DNA of 64,000 nucleotides from Armigeres subalbatus (Eukaryota > Arthropoda > Insecta > Diptera > Culicidae): assembly GCF_024139115.2 (NCBI RefSeq), contig NW_026942506.1, positions 186,001 through 250,000 on the forward strand. Direction: 5' to 3'. Position 1 is the stretch's first letter, and each line of letters opens with the position of its first letter. Below, one piece after another: positions 5,508-62,435 of this stretch. A model generated the notes under the pieces. The model made no database searches. It was not told the origin of the DNA and was given only the letters and a program-made list of their open reading frames with translations. A program made the position numbers and the translations under genes.

Positions 5508-6567
5508 TTATTTATTTATTTATTTCGCCAACCGTCGTAGACAAGTACATATAAATATACATAATTTTTCATTTCTTAATGCTAATATACATAAATTGTG
5601 AAATATTTAAAATATATTTATAATAAAAATTAACTAGAGATTAAATAGTACAGATAAAAATTGTTATATCTTTTGTCTTATGTGTTGCGATTTCGAATTC
5701 TATTAAAATATGTTTTAAGATTCTGCCGAGACATTGTAAAGTCGATAGCTTCGCAGTGTTGATTGTAAATGTCCATTATTCGATTCAAAGGTCCAAATTT
5801 GGCATAATTTGTTCGATGATAGTTTGTTATAAATAAAGTACGATTACGAAGTTGCCTTGAAGGAATATAAAAGTTTAATTTTGATAAGATTTCAGGTGAA
5901 TCAACACGTTGCGAAACGATATCATTTACGAAGGAAACCATTGCTATTTCACGCCGCTCTTTCAAAGTCTGTATGTCAATAAGCATGCAGCGTGCTTTGT
6001 ATTATGGGAGTGGAAATGATGTCCAGTCTAATTTACGAAGAGCAAATAGTAAAAATAGCTTTTGTACAGATTCTAATCTCTCTTCGTGCGTGATTGAGAA
6101 AGGAGACCATACAATACTGCAATATTCCATTATTGATCTAACATAAGCTACATAAAGTGTTTTAATTGTATATGGGTCATGAAAGTTATAGCAGAAACGC
6201 TTTATGAACCGTAGCATATTATTAGCCCTGTGAATGATTGTGTTGTAGTGGTCTACGAAAGAAAGTTTAGAGTCTAAGATTAATCCTAAGTCTCTTACTC
6301 TTTCACATTTTTCCACATTCTGATTCCCTAATGCGATTGAAATGTTTGGTATTGTTCTTTTCTGCTAAATGATATTAAGTTGCATTTCTTTACATTCAGT
6401 TCTAATAGGCTTTTCTTGCACCATATGTAGAATTTGTCTATTTCATTGCGGAATACATTGATGTCGACTTTATTTCTTATTTCCATAAAGAGCTTCATAT
6501 CATCGGCATAAATTAACACTTTAATGTTTTTCAGAATGAAGGAAATGTGTGAAATAATTTCAATCAA
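5508..6567 (-). pseudogene. Jockey/CR1-group LINE, 3' half of reverse transcriptase ORF
   Basis: Three minus-strand frames (6567-6328, 6316-6002, 5986-5678) read consecutively as the palm, thumb and C-terminal region of a non-LTR reverse transcriptase. The catalytic box YADD is near 6495. It is followed by an LNVKKCNLISFSRK segment, then LGLILDSKLSF, then a SIMEYCSIVWSP segment typical of this LINE group. Two frame changes break the ORF. The 3' end carries an AAAT-type tail at about 5510-5526. The 5' half of the same ORF lies at 7655-8491; the sequence coding for the fingers and first palm motif is missing between them. Exact clade (CR1, jockey or Kiri-like) is uncertain. Confidence 0.8.
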
Positions 6568-25269: not shown

Positions 25270-27833
25270 GTAAACAATTTTCAAGAGGAACTTCATCCTA
25301 ATTTCCAGCAAAAGTTTATCTGGAATTCCAGAGGAAATTCATCCGAATTTCCAGAGGAAATTCATCCGAATTTCCAGAGGAAATTCATCCGAATTTCCAG
25401 AGGAAATTCATCCGAATTTCCAGAGGAAATTCATCCGAATTTCCAGAGGAAATTCATCCGAATTTCCAGAGGAAATTCATCCGAATTTCCAGGGGAAATT
25501 CATCCGAATTTCCAGGGGAAATTCATCCGAATTTCCAGGGGAAATTCATCCGAATTTCCAGGGGAAATTCATCCGAATTTCCAGAGGAAATTCATCCGAA
25601 TTTCCAGAGGAAATTCATCCGAATTTCCAGAGGAAATTCATCCGAATTTCCAGAGGAAATTCATCCGAATTTCCAGAGGAAATTCATCCGAATTTCCAGA
25701 GGAAATTCATCCGAATTTCAGAGGAAATTCATCCGAATTTCAGAGGAAATTCATCCGAATTCAGAGGAAATTCATCCAATTTCAGAGGAAATTCATCCGA
25801 ATTTCAGAGGAAATTCATCCGAATTTCCAGAGGAAATTCATCCAATTTCCAGAGGAAATTCATCCAAATTTCAGAGGAAATTCATCCAATTTCCAGAGGA
25901 AATTCATCCAATTTCCAGAGGAAATTCATCCGAATTTCCAGAGGAAATTCATCCGAATTTCCAGAGGAAATTCATCCGAATTCAGAGCAAATTCATCCGA
26001 ATTTCCAGAGCAAATTCATCCGAATTTCAGAGGAAATTCATCCGAATTTCCAGAGGAAATTCATCCGAATTCAGAGGAAATTCATCCAATTCAGAGGAAA
26101 TTCATCCAATTCCAGAGGAAATTCATCCGAATTTCCCGAGGAAACTCATCCTAATTCCCACAGCCAATTCATCCGAATTTCCAGAGCAAATTCATCCGAA
26201 TTTCCAGAGCAGATTCATCCGAATTTCCAGAGGAAATTCATCCGATTTCAGAGGAAATTCATCCGAATTCCAGAGGAAATTCATCCGATTTCAGAGGAAA
26301 TTCATCCGAATTTCCAGAGGAAATTCATCCGATTTCCAGAGGAAATTCATCCGAATTTCCAGAGGAAATTCATCCGAATTTCCAGAGGAAATTCATCCGA
26401 TTTCAGGAAATTCATCCGAATTCAGAGGAAATTCATCCGAATTTCAGAGGAAATTCATCCGATTTCAGAGGAAATTCATCCGATTTCAGAGGAAATTCAT
26501 CCGAATTTCCAGAGGAAATTCATCCGAATTTCCAGAGGAAATTCATCCGAATTTCAGAGGAAATTCATCCGATTTCCAGAGGAAATTCATCCGATTTCCA
26601 GAGGAAATTCATCCGATTTCCAGAGGAAATTCATCCGATTTCCAGAGGAAATTCATCCGAATTCCAGAGGAAATTCATCCGAATTTCCAGAGGAAATTCA
26701 TCCAATTTCCAGAGGAAATTCATCCGAATTTCAGAGGAAATTCATCCGATTTCCAGAGGAAATTCATCCGAATTTCAGAGGAAATTCATCCAATTTCCAG
26801 AGGAAATTCATCCGAATTTCAGAGGAAATTCATCCGATTTCCAGAGGAAATTCATCCGAATTCCAGAGGAAATTCATCCGATTTCCAGAGGAAATTCATC
26901 CGAATTTCCAGAGGAAATTCATCCGAATTTCCAGAGGAAATTCATCCGAATTTCAGAGGAAATTCATCCGAATTTCAGAGGAAATTCATCCGATTTCCAG
27001 AGGAAATTCATCCGAATTTCCAGAGGAAATTCATCCGATTTCAGAGGAAATTCATCCGAATTTCCAGAGGAAATTCATCCGAATTCAGAGGAAATTCATC
27101 CGATTTCCAGAGGAAATTCATCCGATTTCCAGAGGAAATTCATCCGATTTCCAGAGGAAATTCATCCGATTTCCAGAGGAAATTCATCCGAATTTCAGAG
27201 GAAATTCATCCGAATTTCCAGAGGAAATTCATCCGAATTTCCAGAGGAAATTCATCCGAATTTCCAGAGGAAATTCATCCGAATTTACAGAGGAAATTCA
27301 TCCGACTTACAGAGGAAATTCATCCGAATTTCCAGAGGAAATTCATCCGATTTCAGAGGAAATTCATCCGAATTTCCAGAGGAAATTCATCCGAATTTCA
27401 GAGGAAATTCATCCGAATTCAGAGGAAATTCATCCGATTTCCAGAGGAAATTCATCCGATTTCCAGAGGAAATTCATCCGAATTTCCAGAGGAAATTCAT
27501 CCGAATTTCCAGAGGAAATTCATCCGAATTTCCAGAGGAAATTCATCCGAATTTCCAGAGGAAATTCATCCGAATTTCCAGAGGAAATTCATCCGAATTT
27601 CCAGAGGAAATTCATCCGAATTTCCAGAGGAAATTCATCCGAATTTACAGAGGAAATTCATCCGAATTTCCAGAGGAAATTCATCCGAATTTCCAGAGGA
27701 AATTCATCCGAATTTACAGAGGAAATTCATCCGAATTTCCAGAGCAAATTCATCCGAATTTCCAGAGGAAACTCATCCGAATTTCCAGAGGAAATTCATC
27801 CGAATTTCCAGAGGAAATTCATCCGAATTTCCA
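25270..27833 (+). repeat. 23-bp minisatellite, array A1
   Basis: About 110 units of 23 bp, each with GGAAATTC, four bases (ATCC), GAATTTCC and AGA. Units near the left edge are nearly identical; a GGGG variant of the AGAGG segment forms a run at about 25490-25570. Inside the array many units lose single bases from A, T or C runs. Since 23 is not a multiple of three and the unit lacks stops on this strand, long frames such as 25099-26154 arise automatically. They are not genes. Confidence 0.95.
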
Positions 27834-28062
27834 GATTTTTTCAAAATTTTGATTTCCGGCGTGGGCGGTACGAAAGTTGCTCTCCTCCTTGAGTGGGACT
27901 GTGGCCCTCCGAAACGGCGGGCTTGGCCAGCTCGACACGCACGAAGATGTCGTTTACGAGGCTGTTTATAATACTCGACGCCTTCGATGAGACCCTGCCA
28001 CCGCCCGTAGCAACAAACATTGCTGTTGCCTTCTCCGCTGCCTTTCCACCGCCGGGAAATTT
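27834..28062 (-). pseudogene. Histone H2B-derived fragment, copy 1
   Basis: On the minus strand this unique spacer reads GGGKAAEKAT, then VSSKASSIINSLVNDIFVR, then ELAKPAVSEGHS. These resemble the H2B N-terminal tail, the histone-fold helix (SSKAMSIMNSFVNDIFER type) and the C-terminal ELAKHAVSEG. The roughly 30 residues that normally separate NDIFER from ELAKHA are absent, as is most of the tail, so it is not a working histone. It is fused in frame to the minisatellite on its N-terminal side. A near-identical inverted copy lies at 32553-32775. Confidence 0.75.
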
Positions 28063-30112
28063 GAATGAATTTCCCTTGGAAATTCGGATGAATTTCCCTT
28101 GGAAATTCGGATGAATTTCCCTTGGAAATTCGGATGAATTTCCCTTGGAAATTCGGATGAATTTCCCTTGGAAATTCGGATGAATTTCCCCTGGAAATTC
28201 GGATGAATTTCCCCTGGAAATTCGGATGAATTTCCCCTGGAAATTCGGATGAATTCCTGAATTCGGATGAATTTCCCTGAAATTCGGATGAATTTCCTGG
28301 AATTCGGATGAATTCCTGAAATTCGGATGAATTTCCCTGGAAATTCGGATGAATTTCCTGGAATTCGGATGAATTTCCTGAAATTCGGATGAACTTCCTG
28401 GAAATTGGATGAATTTCCTGAAATTCGGATGAATTTCCTGAAATTCGGATGAATTTCTGGAAATTGATGAATTTCCTGAAATTCGGATGAATTTCCTGAA
28501 ATTCGGATGAATTTCCTGAATTGGATGAATTTCCTGAATTCGGATGAATTTCGATGAATTCGAATTGGATGAATTTCTGAATTCGGATGAATTTCCTGGA
28601 AATTCGGATGAATTTCCTCCTGGAAATTCGGATGAATTTCTGAAATTGGATGAATTTCCTGGAAATTCGGATGAATTTCCTGGAAATTCGGATGAATTTC
28701 CTGGAAATTCGGATGAATTTCCTGAAATTGGATGAATTTCCTGAATGGATGAATTTCCTGAAATTCGGATGAATGGATGAATTCCTGAATTCGGATGAAT
28801 TTCCTGGAAATTCGGATGAATTTCCTGGAAATTCGGATGAATTTCCTGAAATTGGATGGAATTTCCTGAATTGATGAATTTCCTGGAGTGGGATGAATTC
28901 CTGGAAATTGAATTGGGATGAATTTCTCTGGAAATTCGGATGAATTTCCTGGAAATTGGATGAATTTCTGAAATTCGGATGAATTTCTGGAAATTCGGAT
29001 GAATTCTCCTTGAAAATGAATTCTGGAAATCCTGGATGAATTTCCTCTGGAGATGAATTTCTCTGGAGTTCAGAATTTCTCTGGAATTGGATGAATTCTC
29101 TGGAAATTCTCTGGAGTTCAGATAATTCTCTGGAAATTGAATGAATTCTCTGGAGTTCATGAATCCTCTGGAATTCAGATGAATTTCCTCTGGAATTCAG
29201 AATGGAATCTCTGGAGGTCAGATGAATTTCTCTGGAAATTCAGATGAATTCCTCTGGAAATTCAGATAATTTCCTCTGGAGATCTGGAAACTGAATGACT
29301 CTGGAGGTCAGTGAATTCCTCTGGAGTTCGAATTTCCTCTGGAAATTCGAATGAATTTCTCTGAAGTTCGGATTGAATGAATTTCCTCTGGAATCTGGAA
29401 TGAATTCTGAATGAATTTCCTCTGGAAGTGAATGAATTTCCTCTGGAACTGGAAATGAATTCCTCTGGAATTGAACAATTTCTCTGGAATTCAGAATTTC
29501 TCTGGAAATTGATGAATTTCCTCTGGAAATTCGATGAATTTCCTCTGGAAATTCAGATGAATTTCTCTGGAAATTGAATAATTACTCTGGAAATTCAGAT
29601 GAATTTTCTGGAAATTCGAATGAATTTCTGGAATTGATGAATTTCTCTGGAAATGAATGAATTTCCTCTGGAAATTCAGAATGAATTTCCTCTGGAATTC
29701 AATGAATTTCTCTGGAAATTGAATGAATTTCCTCTGAAATTCCAATGAATTTCCTCTGGAAATTCAGATGAATTTCCTCTGGAAATTCGGATGAATTTCC
29801 TCTGGAAATTCGGATGAATTTCCTCTGGAAATTCGGATGAGTTTCCTCTGGAAAGGCGGATGAATTTGCTCTGGAAATTGGGATGAATTTCCTCTGTAAA
29901 TTCGGATGAATTTCCTCTGAAATTCGGATGAATTTCTCTGGAAATTCGGACGAATTTCCTTTGGAAAATCGGATAAGTTTTCTCTGGACAATCGAATTAT
30001 TTGCTCTGGAAATTCGGATGAATTTCCTCTGGAAATTCGGATGAATTTCCTCTGGAAATTCGGATGAATTTCCTCTGTAAATTCGGATGAATTTCCTCTG
30101 GAAAGAGGAGGA
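28063..30112 (-). repeat. 23-bp minisatellite, array B (inverted orientation)
   Basis: The same unit as array A1 but reverse-complemented (CGGATGAATTTCC on the plus strand). Variants are ordered outward from the H2B spacer: CCCTTGG, then CCCCTGG, then CCTGG, then CCTCTGG. Between about 28240 and 29750 many units are shortened or run together. Minus-strand open frames here (27841-29160, 29491-29745, 29699-30136) are repeat-derived. Confidence 0.95.
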
Positions 30113-32552
30113 AATCCAGAGGAAATTCATTCGCATTTCCAGAGTAAATTCATTCGAATTTCCAGAGTAAATTCATTCGAATTTCCAGAGTAAATTCATT
30201 CGAATTTCCAGAGGAAATTCATTCGAATTTCCAGTGGAAACTCATTCGAATTTCCAGAGGAAATTCATTCGAATTTCCAGAGGAAATTCATTCGAATTTC
30301 CAGAGGAAATTTATTCGAATTTCCAGAGGACATTCATTCGAATTTCCAGAGGACATTCATTCGAATTTCCAGAGGAAATTCATTCGAATTTCCAGAGGAA
30401 ATTCATTCGAATTTCCAGAGGAAATTCATTCGAATTTCCAGAGGAAATTCATTCGAATTTCCAGAGGAAATTCATCCGAATTTCCAGAGGAAATTAATTC
30501 AATTTCAGAGGAAATTCATTCGATTTCCAGAGGAAATTCATTCGAATTTCCAGAGGAAATTCATTCGATTTCCAGAGGAAATTCATTCAATTTCCAGAGG
30601 AAATTCATTCAATTTCAGAGGAAATTCATTCGAATTTCCAGAGGAAATTCATTTCAATTTCCAGAGGAAATTCATTCGAATTTCCAGAGGAAATTCATTC
30701 AATTTCCAGAGGAAATTCATTCAATTTCCAGAGGAAATTCATTCGAATTTCAGAGGAAATTCATTCAATTTCCAGAGGAAATTCATTCGAATTTCAGAGG
30801 AAATTCATTCAATTTCCAGAGGAAATTCATTCAATTTCCAGAGGAAATTCATTCGATTTCCAGAGGAAATTCATTCAATTTCCAGAGGAAATTCATTCGA
30901 ATTCAGAGGAAATTCATTCGAATTTCAGAGGAAATTCATTCGAATTTCAGAGGAAATTCATTCGATTTCCAGAGGAAATTCATTCGAATTCCAGAGGAAA
31001 TTCATTCGAATTTCCAGAGGAAATTCATTCAATTTCAGAGGAAATTCATTCGAATTTCAGAGGAAATTCATTCAATTTCAGAGGAAATTCATTCGAATTT
31101 CAGAGGAAATTCATTCGATTTCCAGAGGAAATTCATTCAATTCCAGAGGAAATTCATTCAATTCAGAGGAAATTCATTCGAATTTCCAGAGGAAATTCAT
31201 TCGATTTCAGAGGAAATTCATTCAATTTCAGAGGAAATTCATTCAATTTCCAGAGGAAATTCATTCGAATTTCAGAGGAAATTCATTCGAATTTCAGAGG
31301 AAATTCATTCGAATTTCCAGAGGAAATTCATTCGAATTTCAGAGGAAATTCATTCGAATTTCCAGAGGAAATTCATTCGAATTTCCAGAGGAAATTCATT
31401 CGAATTTCCAGAGGAAATTCATTCGAATTTCCAGAGGAAATTCATTCGAATTTCCAGAGGAAATTCATCCGAATTTCCAGAGGAAATTCATTCGAATTTC
31501 CAGAGAAAATTCATTCGAATTACCAGAGGAAATTCATCCGAATTTCCAGAGAAAATTCATTCGAATTACCAGAGGAAATTCATCCGAATTTCCAGGGGAA
31601 ATTCATCCGAATTTCCAGGGGAAATTCATCCGAATTTTCAGGGGAAATTCATCCGAATTTCCAGGGGAAATTCATCCGAATTTCAGGAAATTCATCCGAA
31701 TTTCCAGGGAAATTCATCCGAATTTCAGGGAAATTCATCCGAATTTCCAGGAAAATTCATCCGAATTTCCAGGAAATTCATCCGAATTTCAGGGAAATTC
31801 ATCCGAATTTCCAGGAAATTCATCCGAATTTCCAGGAAATTCATCCGAATTTCCAGGGAAATTCATCCGAATTTCAGGAAATTCATCCGAATTCAGGGAA
31901 ATTCATCCGAATTTAAGAAATTCATCCGAATTTCCAGGAAATTCATCCGAATTTCAGGAAATTCATCCGATTTCCAGGAAATTCATCCGAATTTCAGGAA
32001 ATTCATCCGATTTCCAGGAAATTCATCCGAATTTCAGGGAAGTTCATCCGAATTTCCAGGAGAAATTCATCCGAATTTCCAGGGAAGTTCATCCGAATTT
32101 CCAGGGAAGTTCATCCGAATTTCAGGAAATTCATCCGAATTTCCAGGAAATTCATCCGATTTCCAGGAAATTCATCCGATTTCCAGGGAAATTCATCCGA
32201 ATTTCCAGGGAAATTCATCCGATTTCCAGGGAAATTCATCCGAATTTCAGGAAATTCATCCGATTTCCAGGAAATTCATCCGAATTCCAGGAAATTCATC
32301 CGAATTTCAGGGAAATTCATCCGAATTCAGGAAATTCATCCGAATTCCAGGGAAATTCATCCGAATTTCAGGAAATTCATCCGAATTTCCAAGGAAATTC
32401 ATCCGATTTCAAGGGAAATTCATCCGATTTCAAGGAAATTCATCCGAATTTCAAGGAAATTCATCCGATTTCAAGGAAATTCATCCGACTTCAAGGAAAT
32501 TCATCCGAATTCAAGGAAATTCATCCGAATTTCCAAGGGAAATTCATCCAAA
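30113..32552 (+). repeat. 23-bp minisatellite, array A2 (CATTCG then CATCCG variants)
   Basis: Orientation flips at about 30108 (GGAAAGAGGAGGAAAT). Up to about 31560 the unit carries CATTCG instead of CATCCG, a variant nearly absent elsewhere. From 31580 to 32552 it returns to CATCCG with CCAGGGG, CCAGG and finally CCAAGG linkers, mirroring array B in reverse. Confidence 0.95.
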
Positions 32553-32775
32553 TTTCCCGGCGGTGGAAAGGCAGCGGAGAAGGCAACAGTAATGTTTGTT
32601 GCTACGGGCGGTGGCAGGGTCTCATCGAAGGCGTCGAGCATTATAAACAGCATCGTAAACGACATCTTCGTGCGTGTCGAACTGGCCAAGCCCGCCGTTT
32701 CAGAGGGCCACAGTCCCACTAAAAGAGGAGAGGAATTTTCGTACCGCGCACGCCGGAAATCAAAATTTTGAAATG
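32553..32775 (+). pseudogene. Histone H2B-derived fragment, copy 2 (inverted)
   Basis: The plus strand repeats the H2B-like spacer of 27834-28062 in opposite orientation with a few substitutions: GGGKAAEKAT, VSSKASSIINSIVNDIFVR, ELAKPAVSEGHS. It has the same internal deletion, so the two copies descend from one already-deleted fragment. Beyond it the sequence leaves the repeat and enters ordinary DNA. Confidence 0.75.
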
Positions 32776-43559: not shown

Positions 43560-44420
43560 CTTATATGTAAGCATGTGCTCGCCGTACGTCAGGTATTGCA
43601 GAAATGCCGCGAATACAACGTGCCCACGCATCATCTATTCATCGACTTCAAGGCCGCATATGACTTTAAAGCCGCAATTGATCGGGACTAGCTATGGCAG
43701 CTAATGCACGAACACGGATTTCTGTATAAACTGACACGGTTGATCAAAGCGACAATGGATCGGGTGATGTGCGTAGTTCGAGTTTGAGATGCATTCTCGA
43801 GTCCCTTTGAAATGCGCAGAGGGTTACGGTAAGGTGATGGTCTTTTGTGTCTGCTACGAAGGCCAGGGATTAACACGAGTGGTAGAATTTTCAATAAGTC
43901 TGTCCAGCTTTTTGGCTTCGCTGATGACATAGATATCTGACGATCTACAAAACGCTCATTAGACCGATAGTCCTCTACGGACACGAGACCCGGACGAAGG
44001 CTCGTGGAGGACTAACGCGCACTTGGAGCTTTCGAAAGGAAAGTGCTGCGTTCCATCTATGGTGGGGTGCAGATATCGGACGGTACGTGGAGGAGGCGAA
44101 TGAACCACGAGTTGCATGAGCTGTTGGAAGAACCATCCATCGTTCACACTGCGAAAATCGAAGGACTGCGGTGGGCCGGGCACGTAGCCAGAATGTCGGA
44201 CAGTAATACGGTGAAAATGGTTCTCGACAACGATCCGACGGACACAAGAAGGCGGGGTGCGCAGCGGGCAAGGTGGATCGATCAGGTGGAAGATGACTTG
44301 CGGACCCTCCGTAGACTGCGTGGTTGGCGACGTGTAGCCATGGACCGATCCGAATGGAGAAGACTCTTATATACCGCACAGGCCACTTCGGCCTTAGTCT
44401 GAATAAATAAAATAATAATA
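43560..44420 (+). pseudogene. 5'-truncated, internally deleted RTE element with intact 3' tail
   Basis: Plus strand: the RT segment YNVPTHHLFIDFKAAYD (about 43615-43665), LWQLMHEHGF, RRGLR-GDG, and FADDIDI (about 43915) are present. A deletion then jumps to LTIYKTLIRP, and the open frame 44043-44402 gives the RTE C-terminus (GGVQISDGTWRRRMNHELHE, WAGHVARMSDS) up to the stop and an AATAAATAAAATAATAATAA tail. It is closely related to the 8.5-11.9 kb copy. It abuts the truncated gypsy integrase at 44421. Confidence 0.9.
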
Positions 44421-44422
44421 AG

Positions 44423-45085
44423 TTATGCATATGTGCAATGCCGTGTTCCGACAATGTTTCTGAACAATTTATATTTCAGAGTTATTCCAAAAGTTTTACA
44501 GAAATTGGCGAAATCCTCAGATGCGAAAGGAGGCCCATTATCACACACTAGTTCATCAGGGATTGTTGCAAAGATTGTTCTTAGTTTGAAAATCGTTGTT
44601 TTAGCGGTTGTTGAAGTCAAAATTTCAATTTCAGGATATCTTGAAAAATAATCCACTACTACTAGCAGATGCACCCCGTTTGTTACTTCTGTGAAATCTA
44701 TTGCTAACTTTTTCCAAGGACTATCCGGTAAGGGTGATCTAACCATGGGTTCAGTAGTCGGTTCCGAAACCAAAAGACAACCTTGACATGAATTTACGTA
44801 TTCCTCTACCATAGTGTCAATCCTTACCCACCATACTTTTTCTCTTAATCGTTTCTTCATTGCTGAGCTTCCTAAATGAGGTTCATGTCCGAGATTCAAA
44901 ACCTTCATCTGCAGACTACGTGGAATAATTTTTTTCTTATTTTTAAGGATAATGTCTCCATCCGTTGACAGATCATTTGCGATTAATTTGTAACGTGCTA
45001 GAGTTTTCGGCCATCTGCGAGATGGGTATGGCATCCACTGCAGAAGCTCTGTTAGCTCTACGTCATGTTTAGTAGCTTTGATAAT
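44423..45085 (-). pseudogene. Gypsy integrase, truncated
   Basis: Frame 45034-44423 with sequence extending to about 45085 after a small indel. An N-terminal zinc-binding region (H-EPHLG … CQGC near 44790) is followed by the catalytic core with IDFTEV (first Asp, near 44690) and VCDNGPPFASEDF (second Asp, near 44545). The frame ends soon after GITLKYK, before the third catalytic residue (Glu). It is therefore inactive. Integrase would insert the cDNA copy into the genome. Confidence 0.9.
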
Positions 45086-46089
45086 TTCGTCAAGCAGAGA
45101 TAGCTATAGGGCAAATGTCTGTTGAAATTAAACGAACTACTCTTTCACATTCCTCATCATAGCTTTTGTCAGCGGTTCCGGTATCTTGGCACAATCGAGA
45201 AAGAGTGTCCGCAATGTTTGACTTCCCTGGTCGGTACAGAACTTTGTAGTTGTACGACATCAGCCGAAGCTTCCAGCGCTCAATTCTTGCGGATGGCTTA
45301 ACTCTATCACCAAAAATTGAAACCAGGGGTTTATGATCAGTTATTATCCAGAATGGCATCCCATAAAGATAATGATGAAATTTCTCCGGAGCCCAAACCA
45401 GCGCTAGTGCTTCTTTCTCCGTCTGTGCATAACGTCTCTCTACTTCAGAAAGTGTCTTCGAGGCATAGCAGATTATTTTAAACAAACCATTTGCAGTTTT
45501 CTGATAGAGAACCGCACCTAATCCTACGGGACTTGCGTCGGTTTCAACAAATGTCTCTAATGTAGGATCAAAAAATGCTAGTGTATCAGACCGGCTCAGC
45601 AAATTCTTCAGCTGGTTGAATGCATTCTCGTGTTCCTTTGTCCATATAAAAGGAACTCCTTTTCGAGTCAATGCGTTAAGCGGACTCGATAGAGAAGAAA
45701 AATGTGGTATGTGTCGATTTACAAATGTTGCAAGTCCCAAGAAGCTTCGAACTTCCTCGGTGGATCTTGGTTGACGAAACTTTTTGATTGCCTCCAATTT
45801 TTCTGACGATATCTTAACTCCCTCTGGAGACAGATGGAATCCAAGAAACTCTAATTCGTTCGCACATTCTATCGTTTTTTCATGGTTCAAAATCACGTTA
45901 TGCTCTTTTAATCGGGTTTTAACCAAAGCTTCCCTGACTGATAATGTCTCAGCGTCTGGAGCATGGATCAATACATCGTCGATGAAAATTATGAGCCATG
46001 GAAAATCTCCTAAAATGGTTTCCATGCACTTTTGAAACAACTCCGGGGCTGCCGATAGACCAAAACTAACCGTTTATATCGCATTAGAC

Positions 46090-46148
46090 CTATTAAAATG
46101 TTGTGCTTTAAATTTGTTCGGATTATTCCGTTATAATTCAAATCTTAC
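46090..46148 (-). other. Candidate 59-bp GT-AG intron in reverse transcriptase
   Basis: Minus strand: donor G|GTAAGA at 46148 and acceptor TTTTAATAG|G at 46090. Unspliced reading meets TGA after three codons. Removing the interval joins ISPLG to LMRYKR in frame, the normal RT order. Confidence 0.7.
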
Positions 46149-46538
46149 CTAATGGCGAAATAAATGTAGTTATATAGCGGCAATCTTCCCGCAACATAAG
46201 TTGATAGAATGCGTGCTTAATGTCGAATTTCGAAAACACCTTACTGCCTCGTAATCTGGCAGTCATCTGTTCCATAGTAGGTAACGGATGTACTTCCCGA
46301 ACTATGGCCTTATTAGCTTCACGCAGATCAATAATGATCCTTACCTCGTTTGAACTTTTGCGTTTAACGATCATGGGGGAAACCCATTCGCACGCCTCAT
46401 TCACCCGCTCGATTACATCTTGGCTCATTAACTCTTTAAGTTTTAGTATGGTGATCTCTTCCAATGGAATTGGAATACGACGATAGCCTTGTCTTACAGG
46501 GGGTATGGATTTATCAATCTTTATAGAGGCACACATGC

Positions 46539-46606
46539 CTAAATATTCAATTTGTGGAACAGTGGTTAACAAGATCTTTTAGTAAACTTTGATTATGTTG
46601 CCTTAC
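46539..46606 (-). other. Candidate 68-bp GT-AG intron between protease and reverse transcriptase
   Basis: Minus strand: donor AAAG|GTAAGG at 46606 and acceptor ATATTTAG|G at 46539. Unspliced reading meets TAA within five codons. Removal joins FPSIKG to MCASIKIDKS, the usual spacing before the RT YRR motif. Confidence 0.7.
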
Positions 46607-47319
46607 CTTTGATAGATGGAAACGTTTCATTTCCTAGCGATCTCAGAAATTTCACCACTCCCAAACGTTCCGCCGTTTGTCCAGAGAGGAGTGAATGTTT
46701 CCCATCTTGAATAACAAAGAAGGTTGTCCGGCAGGATTGCTCTCCCACTGCGATCATTGCGTCTACCTCTCCTAAGACTATCAACGGTTTATTTGATCCG
46801 TAGGCTTGAAATATTTTATCGCTTCCCTTTCTGATATCGTAAGCTTCAAATCCAACTCGTTTCAAGGTGGTCCAATCGTCTATGCCGAGCACGTCCTCAT
46901 CGGCTCCTGTATCGATGATAAGTCGAAGATCGACCCCACCTACTGCGGCGATTGTTGTACGCTTTCCGTTCAGGTGAAAAAGTTCTCGAATTTCCACACT
47001 TTTCAACTTCCCGCACGAACTTCGGTTTTGGATTTGCATAGCTTCCATGATTTTGTTGATCTGACCTTTGCTTCCGTCCTTCAATCGACTTGGGCTGTCT
47101 TTGAAATGGTTTCTTTGCCCCTCTACAACAGCGTGCATAATGGCCTAATTTGTTGCATCTGTTGCATCGTGATCCTCGAGCTGGGCATAAAGGATCTACT
47201 GACGTATGATTTCTCGAACATCTGACGCAAGACAATTTCTTCGTTCTGTGTACATTGTCGGCGTTCAGGATAGCATTGACTTCAATGTTATCAGGCGATT
47301 TGAATCGAATTTCGTGGAC

Positions 47320-47378
47320 CTGTTTTGAAATATTTCTAAGAAGGTTGTAAAATAAACATAGATTTTTTTTTAATTTAC
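47320..47378 (-). other. Candidate 59-bp GT-AG intron in gag
   Basis: Minus strand: donor CAG|GTAAAT at 47378 and acceptor AAAACAG|G at 47320. Unspliced reading reaches TAA at the third codon. Removal joins ETVNQQ to VHEIRFKSPDN and the frame then continues uninterrupted into the zinc knuckle. Sharing of ETVNQQ with the upstream capsid supports the join. Confidence 0.75.
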
Positions 47379-47892
47379 CTGTTGGTTAACAGTTTCATAC
47401 GTGCGCCCAATTTTCAACATTTCGTCCAGTGTTGTGTCACATTCCAAATATTTAGCTCTCAGCTTGTCGTCATTTTGAGTAGCATAAACAATTTGGTCCA
47501 TAACCATGCTATCTACTTCATCACCAAAGCTACACATTGCTGCTTGAGTTTTCAAGCGTACTACAAACTGATCCAGTCTCTCGTTTGGACTGAAAGTCAT
47601 TTGTCGGAACTTCAACCTTTCGTAGCGTAGAGACATACGTGGGGAGTAGTAGTTGTCCAGTGCCTCCATCGTTGCACGATATTGGTTGTCCATCAAATTA
47701 TCACTAACGACAACATCCTTAGCGATTTTCCTGATGTCAGGTCCACCAAATTATAATAATGCCTTATGTTTTTCATCACAGTCATGTACTTTCTTTTTCC
47801 AAATAAGCCACAAATTGATCTCTCCATTCCTCCCAACGGGAATTGGTAGATCCGGGTCCGTGTTCGCAGAATGGCGCAATATTATACGTTAA

Positions 47893-48399
47893 CTGCAATA
47901 TACGAAGGTCTATCACATGTGTAACAAACCATGCAGGTTTTGCTGTTTCCATGGTTTCTTATCAAGTGTTATGCAAAAACAAATCTCGAGCAGCTTGTGA
48001 CCGACTTCGAGATTGTTTTACTTTTGCTATGGTAACCTTTTTCTGTTTGTAATTTTTCTCTCTGTATCTCCAAATAGACTAGGATAACGTATATCCCCTT
48101 TATTTGGTATCAGAAACGGACTAGAATTTTTTTTATAATTCCCTTCGTTTCTTGCTAGGATTAGACTGAAGCTCTTAGCACTTCCTATAACCCGTACAGC
48201 GATTTGGAATACGTAGTTCGTTTCGCTTAAACTTCCATAGCAGTAGACTAGAACTCGTAGTTCTCTATACTGAATGATTTTTTTTTCTATTATGAGCTGG
48301 CTTTTCGCATTAGGAAACCATTCTGAAGCTGAATCACAATTGCTCAATTTGGATTTGCTAATACACTAACACTGAACCTGTTCTGTTTTTTTTTCTTAC
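47893..48399 (-). other. Candidate 507-bp GT-AG intron after the gag start
   Basis: Minus strand: ATGTCTTCG followed by donor GTAAGA at 48399; acceptor ATATTGCAG at 47893. The join keeps frame into the capsid. This is the least certain of the four, since an in-frame match by chance is one in three and an alternative ATG exists at 47952. Confidence 0.5.
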
Positions 48400-48485
48400 C
48401 GAAGACATCTTGAAAGGATATATAGGTGAAATTTATTTCCTCTTGATGTTTCTCGGGGTTCGTCCAACAAAGCAAAGTCGTTCCT

Positions 48486-48504
48486 TGAAGTCCTCGTCGC
48501 CAAA
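48486..48504 (-). promoter_or_regulatory. Gypsy primer-binding site
   Basis: Directly after the LTR-like block the minus strand reads TTTGGCGACGAGGACTTCA. TGGCGACGAGG is a frequent start just inside the 5' LTR of insect Ty3/gypsy and related elements, and it marks where minus-strand cDNA begins. Confidence 0.65.
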
Positions 48505-48613
48505 TGTAAGAACTCAATAAAACACAACTTGATTGCTTGGCGTTCAGAACAAAAGTGCTTTATTCATAGCATTGGGTTTCTATGATCATTCTCATAATTC
48601 ATAGCTTACTACA
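48505..48613 (-). repeat. 5' LTR or LTR remnant of the gypsy element
   Basis: A 109-bp block with TGTAGTAAGC at one end and TCTTACA at the other (TG…CA), containing AATAAA twice. This is short for a gypsy LTR, so it may be a 5'-trimmed LTR whose left edge happens to begin TG. No second LTR is available to compare. Confidence 0.5.
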
Positions 48614-48728
48614 GGCACAAGAAGGCGAGGTGCGCAGCGGAAAAGGTGGATCGTGGAAGATGATTTGCGGACCCTCCGTAGACTGCGTGGTTGGCGACGT
48701 GTAGCCACGGGCCGAGCCGAATGGAGAT
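48614..48728 (+). pseudogene. RTE 3' fragment (plus)
   Basis: Reads CACAAGAAGG through RRLRGWRRVAT, matching 44242-44360. It is a decayed C-terminal piece directly joined to an opposite-strand RTE 5' piece. Confidence 0.8.
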
Positions 48729-50484: not shown

Positions 50485-53400
50485 GGAGGTGTGTGGGTTT
50501 TAGAGGCCACCGGGTGGCCACCTGGAATATCCGGAACATCCGTAAAAATGGTCAATTCGTAAATTCCATCGTACAGCGACGAGATTTTTTTAGAACCATT
50601 TTCTGCCGAACCCTGAGTAGGGAATTGATGCTTTGACCCACCTCCGGCCTTTGTATCCACTGGGTGGTCCCCTGGAAGATCCGGAACATCCGTAAAAATG
50701 GTCAATTCGTAAATTCCATCGTACTGCGACGGGATTTTTTTAGAATTATTTTTTGCCCAACCATGAGTATGGAATTGATGCTTCGACCTACATACGGACC
50801 ATTGTGTCCACTGAGTGGTCCCCTGGAAAATCCGGAAAATCCGTAAAAATGGTCAATTCGTAAATTCCATCGTACAGCGACAGGACTTTTTTAGAATTTG
50901 TTTTTCTGCTGAACCCTGAGCATGGAATTGATGCTTCGACCTACATACGAACCATTGTGTCCACTGAGTGGTCCCCTGGAAGATCCGGAACATCCGTAAA
51001 AATGGTCAATCCTGAAATTCCATCGTACAGCGACAGGACTTTTTTAGAATTTTTTTTTGCTGAACACTGAGCATAGAATTGATGCTTCGACCTACATACG
51101 GACCATTGTGTCCACTGAGTGGTCCCCTGGAAAATCCGGAACATCCGTAAAAATGGTCAATCCGTAAATTCCATCGTACAGCGACGGGATTTTTTAAGAA
51201 TTATTGTTTGCCCAACCCTGAGTATGTAATTGATGCTTCGACCTACATATGGACCATTGTGTCCACTGAGTGGTCCCCTGGAAGATCCGGAACATCCGTA
51301 AAAATGGTCAATCCGTAAATTCCATCGTAGAGCGACGGGACTTTTTTGGAATAATTTTTTTGCCCAACCCTGAGTATGGAATTGATGCTTAGACCTACAA
51401 ACGGACCATTGTGTCCACTGGGTGGTCCTCTGGAAGATCCGGGACATCCGTAAAAATGGTCAATTCGTAAATTCCATCGTACAGCGACGGGATTTTTTTA
51501 GAACCATTTTTTGCTGAACCCTGAGTAAGGAATTGATGCTTTGACCCACTTCCGGCCTTTGTGTCCACTGGGTGGTCCCCTGGAAGATCCGGAACATCCG
51601 TAAAAATGGTCAATCCGTAAATTCCATCGTACAGCGACGGGATTTTTTTAGAATTATTTTTTGCCCAACCATGAGTATGGAATTGATGCTTCGACCTACA
51701 TACGGACCATTGTGTCCACTGAGTGGTCCCCTGGAAAATCCGGAAAATCCGTAAAAATGGTCAATTTGTAAATTCCATCGTACAGCGACAGGACTTTTTT
51801 AGAATTTGTTTTTCTGCTGAACCCTGAGCATGGAATTGATGCTTCCACCTACATACGGACCATTGTGTCCACTGGGTGGTCCCCTGGAAGATCCGGAACA
51901 TCCGTAAAAATGGTCAATCCTGAAATTCCATCGTACAGCGACAGGACTTTTTTAGATTTTTTTTTTGCTGAACACTGAGCATAGAATTGATGCTTCGACC
52001 TACATACGGACCATTGTGTCCACTGAGTGGTCCCCTGGAAAATCCGGAAAATCCGTAAAAATGGTCAATCCGTAAATTCCATCGTACAGCGACGGGATTT
52101 TTTAAGAATTATTGTTTGCCCAACCCTGAGTATGTAATTGATGCTTCGACCTACATATGGACCATTGTGTCCACTGAGTGGTCCCCTGGAAGATCCGGAA
52201 CATCCGTAAAAATGGTCAATCCGTAAATTCCATCGTAGAGCGACGGGACTTTTTGGAATAATTTTTTTGCCCAACCCTGAGTATGGAATTGATGCTTAGA
52301 CCTACAAACGGACCATTGTGTCCACTAGGTGGTCCGCTGGAAGATCAGGGACATCCGTAAAAATGGTCAATCCGTAAATTCCATCGTACAGCGACGGGAT
52401 TTTTTAGAATTATTTTTTGAACCCTGAGTAAGGAATTGATGCTTTGACCCACTTCCGGCCTTTGTGTCCACTGGGTGGTCCCCTGGAAGATCCGGAACAT
52501 CCGTAAAAATGGTCAATCCGTAAATTCCATCGTACAGCGACGGGACTTTTTTAAGAATTATTTTTTTGCTGAACCCTGAGTATGGACCATTGTGTCCACT
52601 GGGTGGTCCTCTGGAAGATCCGGAATATTCGTAAATTCCGTCGTACAGCGACGGGATTTTGTTTAGAATTATTTTTTGCTGAACCGTGAGTATGGAATTG
52701 ATGCTTCGACCTACATACGGACCATTGTGTCCGCTGGGTGGTCCCCTGGAAGATCCGGAACATCCGTAAAAATGGTCAATCCGTAATTTCCATCGTACAG
52801 CGACGGGACTTTTTTAGAATTATTTTTTTGCAGAACCCTGAGTATGGACCATTGTGTCCGCTGGGTGGTCCCCTGGAAGATCCGGAACATCCGTAAAAAT
52901 GCTCAATTCGTAAATTCCATCGTACAGCGACGGGATTTTTTTAAAATTATTTTTTCTCCAACCCTGAGTATGGAATTGCTGCTTAGACCTGCATACGGAC
53001 CATTGTGTCTACTGAGTGGTCCCGTGGAAGATCCGGAACATCCGTAAAAATGGTCAATTCGTAAATTCCATCGTACAGCGAAGGGATTTTTTTAGAATTA
53101 TTTTTTGCTAAACTATGAGCATGGAATTGATGCTTCGACCTACATACGGACCATTGTGTCCACTGGGTGGTCCCCTGGAAGATCCGGAACATCCGTAAAA
53201 ATGGTCAATTCGTAAATTCCATCGTACAGCGACGGGATTTTTTTAGAACCATTTTTTGCTGAACCCTGAGTAAGGAATTGATGCTTTGACCCACTTCCGG
53301 CCTTTGTGTCCACTGGGTGGTCCCCTGGAAGATCCGGAACATCCGTAAAAATGGTCAATCCGTAAATTCCATCGTACAGCGACGGGACTTTTTTAAGAAT

Positions 53401-54380
53401 TATTTTTTTTGCTGAACTCTGAGTATGGACCATTGTGTCCACTGGGTGGTCCTCTGGAAGATCCGGAATATTCGTAAATTCCGTCGTACAGCGACGGGAT
53501 TTTGTTTAGAATTATTTTTTGCTGAACCGTGAGTATGGAATTGATGCTTCGACCTACATACGGACCATTGTGTCCGCTGGGTGGTCCCCTGGAAGATCCG
53601 GAACATCCGTAAAAATGGTCAATCCGTAATTTCCAACGTACAGCGACGGGACTTTTTTAGAATTATTTTTTTGCAGAACCCTGAGTATGGACCATTGTGT
53701 CCACTGGGTGGTCCCCTGGAAGATCCGGAACATCCGTAAAAATGCTCAATTCGTAAATTCCATCTTACAGCGACGGGATTTTTTTAAAATTATTTTTTCC
53801 CCAACCCTGAGTATGGAATTGCTGCTTAGACCTGCATACGGACCATTGTGTCTACTGAGTGGTCCCGTGGAAGATCCGGAACATCCGTAAAAATGGTCAA
53901 TTCGTAAATTCCATCGTACAGCGAAGGGATTTTTTTAGAATTATTTTTTGCTAAACTATGAGCATGGAATTGATGCTTCGACCGGTCCTCTGGAATATCC
54001 GGAACATTCGTAAAAATGGTCAATTCGTAAATTCCATCGTAGAGCGACGGGATTTTTTCAGAATTATTTTTTTTACAACCCTGAGTATGGAATTGATGCT
54101 TCGACCTGCTTACGGACCATTGTGTCCACTGGGCGGTCCCCTGGAAGATCCGGAACATCCGTAAAAATGGTCAATCAGAAAATTTCATCGTGATGCGTCA
54201 GGTTTTTATTTTAAACTATTTGTTGCCAAACCCTGAGCATGAAATTTATTCTTTGACCCAAAAACGGACCGTTGTGCCCTTTGGGAGGTCCCCTCAATAA
54301 TCCGGAATTCCCGTAAAAATGGTCAATTCGCAAACTGAAGCGACGTCTTTTTAATCAAACAATTTTTTGCAAAACCATGT
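50485..54380 (+). repeat. ~150-bp tandem repeat, left arm of the TTAA element
   Basis: Each unit contains CCACTGGGTGGTCCCCTGG, GATCCGGAACATCCGTAAAA, a CCATCGTACAGCGACGGGA segment, a T run and GGAATTGATGCTTCGACC. Successive units start at about 50661, 50812 and 50965. A variant with TTTGACCC and TCCGGCCTTTGTGTCC recurs at about 50643, 51551, 52456 and 53298, giving a higher-order period near 0.85-0.9 kb. Confidence 0.95.
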
Positions 54381-54439
54381 GGGTCAAAGCATCAATTGCA
54401 TCAATTGCATACTTCGGGTTCTTCAGAAATGGAATATTA

Positions 54440-56560
54440 GAAATGATCATTTTTACGAATGTTCCAGATCATCCAATGGACCACCCAGTGGACACAATGG
54501 TCCGTATGTAGGTCATAGCATCGTTTCCATGCTCAGGGTTCGGTAGAAAATGGTTCTTAAAAAATCCCGTCGATTACGATTACGGAAAATTCGAATTGAC
54601 CATTTTAACGGATGTTCCGGGTCTCCCAGGGGACCACCCAGTGGACACAGTGGTCCGTATGTGGGTCATAGCATCGTTTCCATGCTCAGGGCTCGGCAGA
54701 AAATGGTTTTAAAAAAATCCCGTCACCTAACGCTGGAATATTCGAATTGACCATTTTTACGGATCTTCCAGAAGACCATCCAGTGGACAGAATGGTCCGT
54801 ATGTGGGTCAAAGCATCGATTCCATGCTCAGGGTTCGGCAGAAAATGGTTCTAAAAAATCTCGTCGCTTCACGATGTATTTTAAGAATTGATCATTTTTA
54901 CGGGTGCTTCGGGTCTTCCAGTGGACCACCCAGTAGACACAATGGTCCGTATGTAGGTCGAAGCATCAATTCCATACTCAGGGTTGGGCAAAAAATAATT
55001 CTAAAAAAATCCCGTCGCTGTACGATGGAATTAACGAATTGACCATTTTTACGGATGTTCCGGATCTTCCAGGGGACCACCCAGTGGACACAATGGTCCG
55101 TATGAAGGTCGAAGCATCAATTCCATACTCAGGGTTGGGCAAAAAATTATTCTAAAAAATCCCGTCGCTGTACGATGGAATTAACGAATTGACCATTCTT
55201 ACGGATGTTCCGGATCTTCCAGGGACCCCTTCCAGGTCCGTATGCAGGTCGAAGCATCAATTCCATACTCAGGGTTGGGCAAAAAATAATTTAAAAAAAT
55301 CCCGTCGCTCTACGATGGAATTTACGAATTGACCATTTTTACGGATGTTCCGGATCTCCAGGGGACCACCCAGTGGACACAATGGTCCGTATGCAGGTCG
55401 AATCATCAATCCCATACTCAGGGTTCTGCAAAAAAAAATTATTCCAAAAAAATCCCCTCGCTCTACGATGGAATTTACGGATTGACCATTTTTACAGATG
55501 TTCCGGATCTTCCAAGGGACCACTCAGTGGACACAATGGTCCATATGTAGGTCGAAGCATCGATTCCGTACTCAGGGTTGGGCAAAATATAATTCTAAAA
55601 AATCCCGTCGCTCTACGATGGAGTTTACGAATAGACCATTTTTACGGATGTTCCGGATCTTCCTGGGGACCACCCAGTGGACACAATGGTTCGTATGTGG
55701 GTCAAAGCATCAATTCCATGCTCAGGGTTCGTCAGAAAATCCCGTCGCTTGACGATGGAATTTACGAATTGACCATTTTTACGGATGTTCCGGATCTTCT
55801 AGGGGACCACCCAGTGGACACAATGGTCCGTATGCAGGTCAAAGCATCAATTCCATACTCAGGGTTGGGCAAAAAATAATTCTAAAAAAATCCCTTCGCT
55901 GTAAGATGGATTTTACGTATTGACCATTTTTACGGATGTTCCGGATCTTCCAGTGGACACAATGGTCCGTATATAGAGCGAAGCATCAATTCCATACTCA
56001 GGGTTCAGCAAAAAAATTCTAAAAAAAATCCCGTCGCTGTACGATGGAATTTACGAATTGACCATTTTTACGGATGTTCCGGATTTTCCAGGGGACCACC
56101 CAGTGGACACAAAGGCCGGAAGTGGGTCAAAGCATCAATTCCCTACTCAGGGTTCAACAAAAAATGGTTCTAAAAAAATCTCGTCGCTGTACGATGGAAT
56201 TTACGAATTGACCATTTTTACGGATGTTCCGGATCTTCCAGGGGACCACCCAGTGGACACAATGGTCCGTATGCAGGTCGAAGCATCAATTCCATACTCA
56301 GGGTTGGGCAAAAAATAATTCTAAAAAAATCCCGTCGCTCTACGATGGAATTTACGAATTGACCATTTTTACGGATGTTCCGGATCTTCCTGGGGACCAC
56401 CCAGTGGACAAATGGTCCGTATGTGGGTCAAAGCATCAATTCCATGCTCAGGGTTCGTCAGAAAATGGTTCTAAAAAAATCCCGTCGCTGTACGATGGAA
56501 TTTACGAATTGACCATTTTTACGGATGTTCCGGATCTTCTAGGGGACCACCCGGTGGCCT
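54440..56560 (-). repeat. ~150-bp tandem repeat, right (inverted) arm
   Basis: Same units as the left arm on the opposite strand, beginning after a degraded turn at 54380-54440. The outermost unit carries GTGGCCTC like the first left unit (GAGGCCAC), so the arms are true inverted counterparts, although the right arm is shorter. A CA-rich tract follows at 56580-56660. Confidence 0.95.
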
Positions 56561-56747
56561 CTGAATTCACACAGTTCTCTGGAACCACACTTACACACAA
56601 GCGCATACATAGACACAGCGATACACACCAACATACTCACATACAAACACCCACAGACACATAAATGCTCATTGTAGGGCGGTTGGGTACCCGGGTACCC
56701 CGTCACCCGTTTACGGTGGGAAAAATCGTCACTCACATAAGGGTTAA

Positions 56748-62199: not shown

Positions 62200-62435
62200 T
62201 AATTGGATGCCGAAAACGAGTTCGAATTCTAACAGTTACCTGCTAGAGAACTAATCAAGTTGTAGGTATAGAAGATGGAAACGGTATGAAAGCCCATTTC
62301 CAGTTCTAGCGATTGCTAGAACATGAGAAATATATGAAAAGATACAAAGTAGGAGGAATGGAACGGGCCTGGGATTGAACCCACGACCTTCTGCGTATGA
62401 GGCAGAAGCGGTAGCCATATGACCACCAAGCCCGT
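62200..62435 (-). mobile_element. tRNA-related SINE-like element
   Basis: The minus strand from 62435 begins ACGGGCTTGGTGGTC with an A-box-like TGGTGGTCATATGG, a 7-bp hairpin closing CTCATAC (CAT in anticodon position) and a B-box-like GGTTCAATCC. The end, GGCCCGT at 62363, pairs with the start over 7 bp. The T-stem does not pair well, so it is not a working tRNA. The tail (about 62200-62360) includes GCAATCGCTAG. This layout fits a tRNA-derived mosquito SINE; its 3' end is uncertain. Confidence 0.6.

What the first reader, a model, noticed from the sequence alone, without database searches (positions are those of the whole stretch)
44421..48613. Ty3/gypsy gag-pol interrupted by up to four in-frame GT-AG introns
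Intervals of 507, 59, 68 and 59 bp each have a GTAAG/GTAAA donor and an AG acceptor. The three short ones bring immediate stops if retained, and removing each restores both frame and the expected order of protein motifs. A retrotransposon copied through RNA should lose such introns. The pattern suggests a host-retained (domesticated) gag-pol gene inherited as DNA, or a family that uses splicing and keeps unspliced genomic RNA.
Basis: partly seen in the sequence, partly recalled or inferred. Interest (0 to 1): 0.87.

Follow-up and report, generated by a model that had tools for sequence, protein, structure and literature searches.

The report
Mosquito retrotransposon family carrying several introns
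A group of mosquito "copy-and-paste" DNA elements has its own protein gene split by several introns and keeps them while copying itself through RNA, apparently by using unspliced RNA as the copy template and spliced RNA for protein, which makes it a natural test bed for how introns come and go.

Summary
The four GT-AG intervals are real and belong to an LTR-retrotransposon family. The window copy (44476-48613, minus strand) is a decayed, 3'-truncated Ty3/gypsy copy, not a domesticated gene. The same genome (1.34 Gb, inferred Armigeres subalbatus) holds sister copies, 96.6-98.9% identical, three with LTR pairs and target-site duplications, that keep the introns. So the introns pass through retrotransposition.

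Relatives carry different intron sets at exact coding positions. In one subfamily two insertions, 97-99% identical to intron-bearing L027, show clean losses: L013 lacks introns 3 and 6 but keeps 1 and 2; a copy at C2:437.56M lacks intron 2 and keeps 1. Reverse transcription of partly spliced RNA predicts this.

Intron 1 lies between a short start exon (seen in 15 of 15 loci) and the gag body (preceded by AG in 14 of 14); 9 of those 14 have no other in-frame ATG, so Gag there appears to need splicing. In four subfamilies intron 1 holds hairpins with a conserved internal loop and covarying stems, not found in the rest of 22 sources.

Proposed: spliced RNA makes protein; unspliced RNA, marked by intron 1, is exported or packaged. 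No RNA was examined. Plant Ogre is the nearest known case.

The parts
44476..48613 (-). Ty3/gypsy LTR-retrotransposon copy, 5' end complete, 3' end (end of IN, polypurine tract, 3' LTR) missing, coding region decayed
   Evidence: 96.6-98.9% identity by piece to sister copies L009, L010, L015, L017 over element positions 1-4138; Pfam RVT_1, RT_RNaseH, Integrase_H2C2, rve on the pieces
48505..48613 (-). 5' LTR, 109 bp, TGTAGT...TTACA
   Evidence: same 109 bp (with at most one difference per copy) is the LTR of L009, L010 and L017, and of L015
48492..48502 (-). primer-binding site TGGCGACGAGG
   Evidence: follows the 5' LTR here and in sister copies; tRNA partner not tested
48400..48408 (-). start exon: ATG TCT TCG
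   Evidence: ATG plus two codons then GT in 13 of 15 loci read; a 5-codon MAWPM start in the other 2
47893..48399 (-). intron 1 (507 bp)
   Evidence: 385-799 bp between start exon and gag body in 12 loci; AG just before the gag body in 14 of 14 loci where it was recognised
48241..48272 (-). hairpin 1 of the intron-1 array (internal loop TAG/AGTC)
48158..48193 (-). hairpin 2 of the array (TAG/AGTC)
48112..48152 (-). hairpin 3 of the array (AAG/AGTC)
48070..48107 (-). hairpin 4 of the array (AAG/AGTC)
47379..47892 (-). gag exon (capsid region), frameshifted and with a stop in this copy
   Evidence: weak Pfam PNMA match, below cut-off
47320..47378 (-). intron 2 (59 bp), between capsid and nucleocapsid
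   Evidence: present in 9 and absent in 6 of 20 loci, 5 not covered; NCBI's protein for LOC134215840 matches copy L010 exactly in two runs that flank this intron
46607..47319 (-). nucleocapsid (CCHC knuckles) and protease exon
   Evidence: sequence; motif recognition recalled, no Pfam match
46539..46606 (-). intron 3 (68 bp), between protease and RT
   Evidence: present in 14, absent to the base in 1 of 20 loci, 5 not covered
46149..46538 (-). RT exon, N-terminal part
   Evidence: Pfam RVT_1 positions 2-97
46090..46148 (-). intron 4 (59 bp), inside RT
   Evidence: present in 9, absent to the base in 9 of 20 loci, 2 not covered
44476..46089 (-). RT C-terminal part, RNase H, integrase exon, truncated and frameshifted
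   Evidence: Pfam RVT_1, RT_RNaseH, Integrase_H2C2, rve
44238..44402 (+). LINE 3' end beside the truncated end (flank, not part of the element)
   Evidence: direct repeats D3, D5; naming as LINE recalled
48614..48727 (+). LINE fragment beside the 5' LTR; the element probably inserted into it
   Evidence: direct repeats D3, D5; naming as LINE recalled

Best explanation
This is a decayed member of a Ty3/gypsy LTR-retrotransposon lineage whose gag-pol is split by spliceosomal introns. Shown at DNA level: young insertions carry the introns, and exact intron losses occur in single insertions. Inferred: host splicing joins a short start exon (ATG plus 2-4 codons) to gag and removes the other introns, giving the gag-pol mRNA. 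RNA that escapes splicing is the template for reverse transcription, so new copies inherit the introns; in most subfamilies read it could not make Gag itself. Intron 1, just after the primer-binding site and present only in unspliced RNA, carries a structured RNA array in four subfamilies, which most likely marks that RNA for nuclear export and/or packaging. When a partly spliced RNA that keeps intron 1 is copied, the new insertion loses other introns exactly.
For: The introns are present in sister copies L009, L010, L015, L017 and, where covered, in the more distant L016, L018, L019. 11 of 11 matches at >=80% identity that span intron 3, and 10 of 10 that span intron 4, window copy included, run through without an intron-sized gap (40 of 45 candidates scored). 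L010, L015 and L017 have LTR pairs at 108/109, 109/110 and 109/109. Of 20 loci, 14 show an LTR pair in the stretch fetched, and 11 of these 14 have an exact 5-bp target-site duplication. L013 and L027 are 97.6-99.1% identical by piece, yet L013 lacks introns 3 (64 bp) and 6 (61 bp) to the base and keeps introns 1 and 2. Another copy (L029/L030) lacks intron 2 (70 bp in L027) to the base and keeps intron 1, and introns 3 and 6 by alignment span. Short start exon before GT in 15 of 15 loci; AG just before the gag body in 14 of 14 loci where it was recognised, 9 of them without an in-frame ATG since the last stop. Between subfamilies pS is 0.76-0.86 and pN 0.14-0.22 in the RT/RH exon (7 pairs), so the protein is constrained. 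Hairpins: 14 of 15 base pairs have changes on both sides; 94.3% of cells pair, against 72.3% in shuffles and 30-53% when slid. All 48 model hits (E <= 2) in 263 kb, both strands, lie in intron 1 on the sense strand (places checked), including 4 in L026, a subfamily not used to build the model.
Against: No RNA was examined, so splicing, its efficiency and the identity of the packaged RNA are inferred. In 5 of 14 loci (the four window-family copies L009, L010, L015, L017, and L014) an in-frame ATG lies inside intron 1 upstream of the gag body, so unspliced RNA of the window's own family could make a Gag with a different start. The hairpin descriptor was read off the same sequences that it then scored, and the model was trained on 10 of them; one of the five covariation measures (further pair types, 21 against 18.9, 110 of 500 shuffles as high) is not beyond shuffles. 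The array was not found in L014/L022, L021, L024 or L023, so it cannot be the only signal. The 3' end of intron 1 was not located in L026. L011 has no target-site duplication, L017 has 7 bp and L024 4 of 5. The fifth interval (RT of L014, L022) stays open in frame in L014 and may be a read-through insertion. Other copies of the L027 subfamily, apart from L013, L029/L030 and L031, were judged from alignment coordinates, not letters.
Confidence: 0.85

Rival explanations
1. A domesticated host gag-pol gene, inherited as DNA, that gained introns like any gene.
For: Introns of typical insect size (recalled); the RT exon is conserved between subfamilies; NCBI lists one copy as a gene.
Against: Window copy is broken in several places and truncated. 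Sister copies are dispersed LTR elements with near-identical LTR pairs and target-site duplications. The NCBI gene is itself such a copy, L010.
Confidence: 0.02
2. Non-autonomous, intron-bearing copies moved in trans by proteins of another, intron-less element.
For: Many copies are broken; if the template is unspliced, its proteins come from another RNA molecule in any case.
Against: The coding exons evolve under constraint between subfamilies, and several copies keep long open frames in the RT/RH/IN part. No intron-less copy of the window family was seen among 11 (intron 3) and 10 (intron 4) spanning matches.
Confidence: 0.1
3. Intron 3 is not an intron but the gap between a gag-protease frame and a pol frame that starts at its own ATG.
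For: An ATG follows the acceptor in the window family, in L011/L012/L028 and in L027. The protein search behind the shared frame ends favours frames of that length.
Against: L013 lacks the interval exactly while its sister L027 has GTAAAT...CCCAG there; L014/L022, L021, L023 and L025 have no ATG at that place; 9 of 12 homologous frames end 1-7 residues after IKG (IRG in one) with a residue that fits a GT[A/G]A donor, 2 do not fit and 1 is frameshifted earlier.
Confidence: 0.03
4. The intron-bearing copies spread by DNA-level duplication of one locus, not by retrotransposition.
For: Much of the window is tandem repeats.
Against: The pairs L013/L027, L014/L022 and L012/L028 align from LTR end to LTR end and not into the flanks, and 11 of 14 loci have their own exact 5-bp target-site duplication.
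Confidence: 0.02

Closest known systems
Ogre (plant Ty3/gypsy) with a spliced intron
   Same: An LTR element whose transcripts are spliced in or beside the coding region: 'Ogre splices between ORFs' (PMC3735527, passages), and a review names Ogre and EVADE as intron-bearing exceptions (PMC12786077, passages). That the Ogre intron lies between protease and RT, like intron 3, is recalled; the original paper is not held.
   Different: Ogre is a plant element with one intron (recalled); here six positions plus one uncertain, a split start codon, subfamily-specific sets, exact losses, and hairpins in intron 1.
BARE (barley Ty1/copia)
   Same: Separate RNA pools for translation and for packaging, with splicing (PMC3735527, abstract and passages).
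   Different: BARE splices one 104-nt intron to favour Gag; its unspliced capped RNA is translated too. Here, in most subfamilies read, Gag itself seems to need splicing.
copia of Drosophila; CRR; Cer1 of C. elegans
   Same: LTR elements with spliced transcripts (PMC3735527 and PMC12786077, passages).
   Different: Splicing removes pol or rt, or makes a nuclear protein needed for export of unspliced RNA; the passages do not describe gag-pol rebuilt from several exons.
Penelope-like elements
   Same: Retroelements known for introns kept through copying (PMC3846280, passages).
   Different: A different class of retroelement; that paper considers an antisense template. Here LTR, PBS, purine tract and integrase point to ordinary sense RNA.
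Retroviral packaging signals and the MPMV export element (recalled)
   Same: A structured cis-acting RNA, lost from spliced RNA in the case of packaging signals; tandem internal loops in the export element.
   Different: No Rfam match above gathering score for window 47800-48650; function here is inferred only.

Membership tests
Ty3/gypsy LTR retrotransposon | LTR pair beginning TG and ending CA | tested here: met
   5' LTR in the window; pairs in sister copies, e.g. L010, L017; the window's 3' LTR is lost
Ty3/gypsy LTR retrotransposon | PBS after the 5' LTR and purine-rich tract before the 3' LTR | tested here: met
   GGCGACGA after the 5' LTR and purine-rich tracts before the 3' LTR in the 14 loci printed; tRNA partner not tested
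Ty3/gypsy LTR retrotransposon | pol order PR-RT-RNase H-IN | tested here: met
   Pfam RVT_1, RT_RNaseH, Integrase_H2C2, rve in order on the minus strand; protease only by its DTGAD motif (recalled; no Pfam match)
Ty3/gypsy LTR retrotransposon | short target-site duplication | tested here: met
   exact 5 bp in 11 of 14 loci; not testable for the truncated window copy
Spliceosomal introns | GT-AG ends, exact coding position, exact presence or absence between relatives | tested here: met
Spliceosomal introns | splice-junction RNA | not testable with these tools
   no read data; only NCBI's protein for copy L010, which skips intron 2
Domesticated host gene | intact locus without LTRs or mobility | tested here: not met
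   broken copy of a multi-copy LTR family
Domesticated host gene | conserved synteny in related mosquitoes | not tested
   no other mosquito genome was at hand
Ogre-type intron element | intron between protease and RT | tested here: met
   intron 3 in 14 of 15 covered loci; likeness in position recalled, kinship not tested
Packaging or export element in intron 1 | conserved RNA structure confined to unspliced RNA | tested here: met
   in four subfamilies; not found in L014/L022, L021, L023, L024
Packaging or export element in intron 1 | binding to Gag or an export factor | not testable with these tools
   needs experiment

The most novel reading that the evidence does not exclude
A lineage of animal LTR retrotransposons has put its protein output behind splicing (in most subfamilies even the start codon is split from gag), copies mainly unspliced RNA, and tags that RNA with a repeated, covarying hairpin array inside intron 1. 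Because each round of copying samples a more or less spliced RNA, the lineage gains and loses spliceosomal introns visibly, so intron turnover can be read insertion by insertion in one genome.
Probability: 0.6. Interest if true: 0.92.

Novelty: new variant of a known kind. Interest (0 to 1): 0.86.

Why it matters
A retroelement copied through RNA should shed introns, and intron-loss reporters rely on that. Here young insertions keep several introns, and sister insertions have lost single ones exactly. That makes separation of mRNA and genomic RNA testable in an animal retrotransposon, offers a candidate RNA signal (intron-1 hairpins), and gives a series of insertions for studying intron gain and loss, a long-standing open question. 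It also warns that 'has introns' does not prove that a retroelement gene is domesticated, and that such copies enter gene sets as genes (LOC134215840).

Tried and rejected
Domesticated gene: rejected (see rivals). Random insertions in a dead copy: rejected, since positions recur in other insertions. Intron 3 as a frame gap: rejected by L013 against L027. A 92-bp difference at the end of intron 1 between L014 and L022 looked like an alternative splice, but its ends are not GT-AG. A gap over intron 2 in a copy at C2:57.81M is an ordinary deletion with a short shared sequence at its ends, and a copy at C3:258.13M is rearranged. A copy at C1:182.44M, shorter than its relatives, was read and keeps introns 2, 3 and 6, with changes at some splice sites (L031). 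Searches for DNA of relatives in viral and prokaryote contigs gave nothing. Rfam: two matches below gathering score, on the other strand. Papers: (open-licence papers only) showed no work on a multi-intron Ty3/gypsy element of mosquitoes in the listings; subscription papers are outside the library.
Full report
What is in the window. The element lies on the minus strand, from its 5' LTR at 48613 to 44476, where homology with sister copies stops. A 109-bp LTR is followed by a primer-binding site, a start exon ATG TCT TCG, a 507-bp intron, gag, a 59-bp intron, nucleocapsid and protease, a 68-bp intron, the first part of RT, a 59-bp intron, then the rest of RT, RNase H and integrase. The 3' end is missing; both flanks hold pieces of one repeat that I take for a LINE. 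The copy is broken in gag, at the NC/PR border, in RT and at RH/IN. It is a dead copy.

Protein searches. Three searches used exon pieces kept apart. Relatives read without a gap across the RT site, and one 92%-identical frame, P0121, ends just after the same site. Of 12 protease relatives, 9 end 1-7 residues after IKG (IRG in one), at the intron-3 site, with a residue that fits GT[A/G]A; 2 do not fit and 1 is frameshifted before it. The length filter of that search favours frames that end there, so this count is weaker than it looks. P0151 is NCBI's LOC134215840 of Armigeres subalbatus; it matches copy L010 exactly in two runs split by the 62-bp intron 2. The contig length given for P0151 equals that of C2 of the window's assembly, hence the host name, which is inferred.

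The family in its genome. The RT/RNase H piece matched 122 places (122 of 8050 candidates scored). I fetched 20 regions. L009, L010, L015 and L017 are 96.6-98.9% identical to the window copy, in one or two pieces, over its length. L010, L015 and L017 have LTR pairs at 108/109, 109/110 and 109/109; L009 shows only one LTR in the stretch fetched. Introns 2, 3 and 4 are present in each copy of the family where the site is covered, with small indels inside. A 701-bp probe over introns 3 and 4 found 11 of 11 spanning matches at >=80% identity that keep intron 3, and 10 of 10 that keep intron 4; these counts include the window copy and come from alignment spans (40 of 45 candidates scored).

Subfamilies. 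In the 20 loci, intron 2 is present in 9, absent in 6, not covered in 5; intron 3 present in 14, absent to the base in 1, not covered in 5; intron 4 present in 9, absent to the base in 9, not covered in 2. Further ones: a 60-bp interval in RT of L014 and L022, which stays open in frame in L014; a 61-bp intron (intron 6) after DILK in L027; and an intron in integrase after DYFSR in L024, 62 bp with a TACTAAC. Fourteen of the 20 loci show an LTR pair, at 96.7-100%; 11 of the 14 have an exact 5-bp target-site duplication, L017 has 7 bp, L024 4 of 5, L011 none. Between subfamilies synonymous sites are saturated (pS 0.76-0.86) while pN is 0.14-0.22 in 7 pairs; one pair inside the window family (L009, L010) gave 0.13 and 0.12, distorted by a frameshift in L010. 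The proteins are thus constrained over long divergence. Introns 1 and 3 occur in both main clades of the tree.

Exact losses. L013 and L027 align from LTR end to LTR end at 97.6-99.1% by piece. L027 has a 64-bp intron 3 and a 61-bp intron 6; L013 has neither, joined to the base, yet keeps intron 2 and intron 1. A third copy, at C2:437.56M (97-98% to L027), lacks the 70-bp intron 2 to the base (L029), keeps intron 1 (L030) and, by alignment span, introns 3 and 6. In that subfamily (matches of 87% identity or more) I count by alignment span: intron 2 kept in 10, lost in 1, one unclear because of an insertion there; intron 3 kept in 11, lost in 1; intron 6 kept in 10, lost in 1. 40 of 71 candidates were scored. 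One of the kept cases was read in letters (L031). Reverse transcription of partly spliced RNA explains the losses simply.

Intron 1. In 13 of 15 loci an ATG plus two codons is followed by GT; in L021 and L024 the start is MAWPM. In L023 and L024 it is not the first ATG of the leader, and in L023, L026 and L028 the 3' end of intron 1 was not located. The gag body starts right after an AG in 14 of 14 loci where it was recognised (16 looked at); 9 of the 14 have no in-frame ATG since the last stop, while 5 do: L009, L010, L015, L017 and L014. So for the window's own family the sequence does not by itself force splicing of intron 1; the shared start exon argues for it.

Hairpin array. Intron 1 holds hairpins whose two stems are separated by [U/A]AG on the 5' side and AG[U/G]C on the 3' side. 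The descriptor finds 9 in eight representatives (4 in the window, 3 in L012, 2 in L027, none in L014, L026, L021, L024, L023), against a mean of 0.01 in 200 shuffles, and none outside intron 1 in eight loci on either strand. The descriptor was read off these sequences. On ten hairpins, 14 of 15 pairs show changes on both sides, and 94.3% of cells pair, against 72.3% in shuffles and 30-53% when slid; one of five measures is not beyond shuffles. A model from those ten gave 48 hits at E <= 2 in 22 sources (263 kb, both strands), all in intron 1 on the sense strand; L026, not used for the model, has 4, at E 0.00035 to 0.26. No hits in L014, L022, L021, L023, L024. Rfam has no match above gathering score for window 47800-48650.

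How it most likely works. Spliced RNA makes Gag and Pol. Unspliced RNA is copied. Intron 1, present only in the copied RNA, is the natural place for an export or packaging signal, and the hairpin array is a candidate. Partial splicing before packaging explains single losses, and retention of intron 1 in L013 and L030 fits. Shown: anatomy, signs of mobility, inheritance of introns, exact losses, covariation. Inferred: splicing, RNA pools, function of the array.

Known relatives. Plant Ogre, BARE, copia and Cer1 use splicing, and Penelope elements keep introns (abstract or passages only). None of the passages I read describes several introns with a split start codon and exact losses. The ten paper searches listed no such animal LTR element, but the library is open-licence only.

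Noticed in passing
window 25279-32560 and 50507-56729: Large tandem-repeat arrays, some in inverted orientation to each other, fill much of the window.
   Followed up: no
window 62359-62435: tRNA-Met gene.
   Followed up: no
L021 oriented 6170-6260: The 85-bp interval at the integrase intron site begins with about 60 bp resembling the exon that follows: a candidate for intron gain by tandem duplication.
   Followed up: partly
L014 and L022, intron 1: Repeats of a different hairpin (ATCAGAACGATCCGTTCGTTTGATT type; three imperfect copies in L014) stand where other subfamilies have the [U/A]AG-AG[U/G]C array.
   Followed up: partly
L026, intron 1: Neighbouring hairpins can also pair in a swapped register (AGTC on the 5' side, TAG on the 3' side), as if the array could switch.
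   Followed up: no
L023, intron-1 region: A 27-bp hairpin with an AAG/CTGG internal loop.
   Followed up: no
window family at the fifth site in RT, e.g. L010: The exon reads AACGAG-GTAAGGATC there, which looks like a splice donor at the very site where L014 has a 60-bp interval.
   Followed up: no
L025: The gag region is present twice in tandem, about 1.3 kb apart.
   Followed up: no
P0007, P0010, P0026, P0035 (about 50% identical proteins from other sources): Frames begin with non-homologous residues just before the VEIS stretch of RT, after a Q, hinting at yet another intron site in more distant relatives.
   Followed up: no
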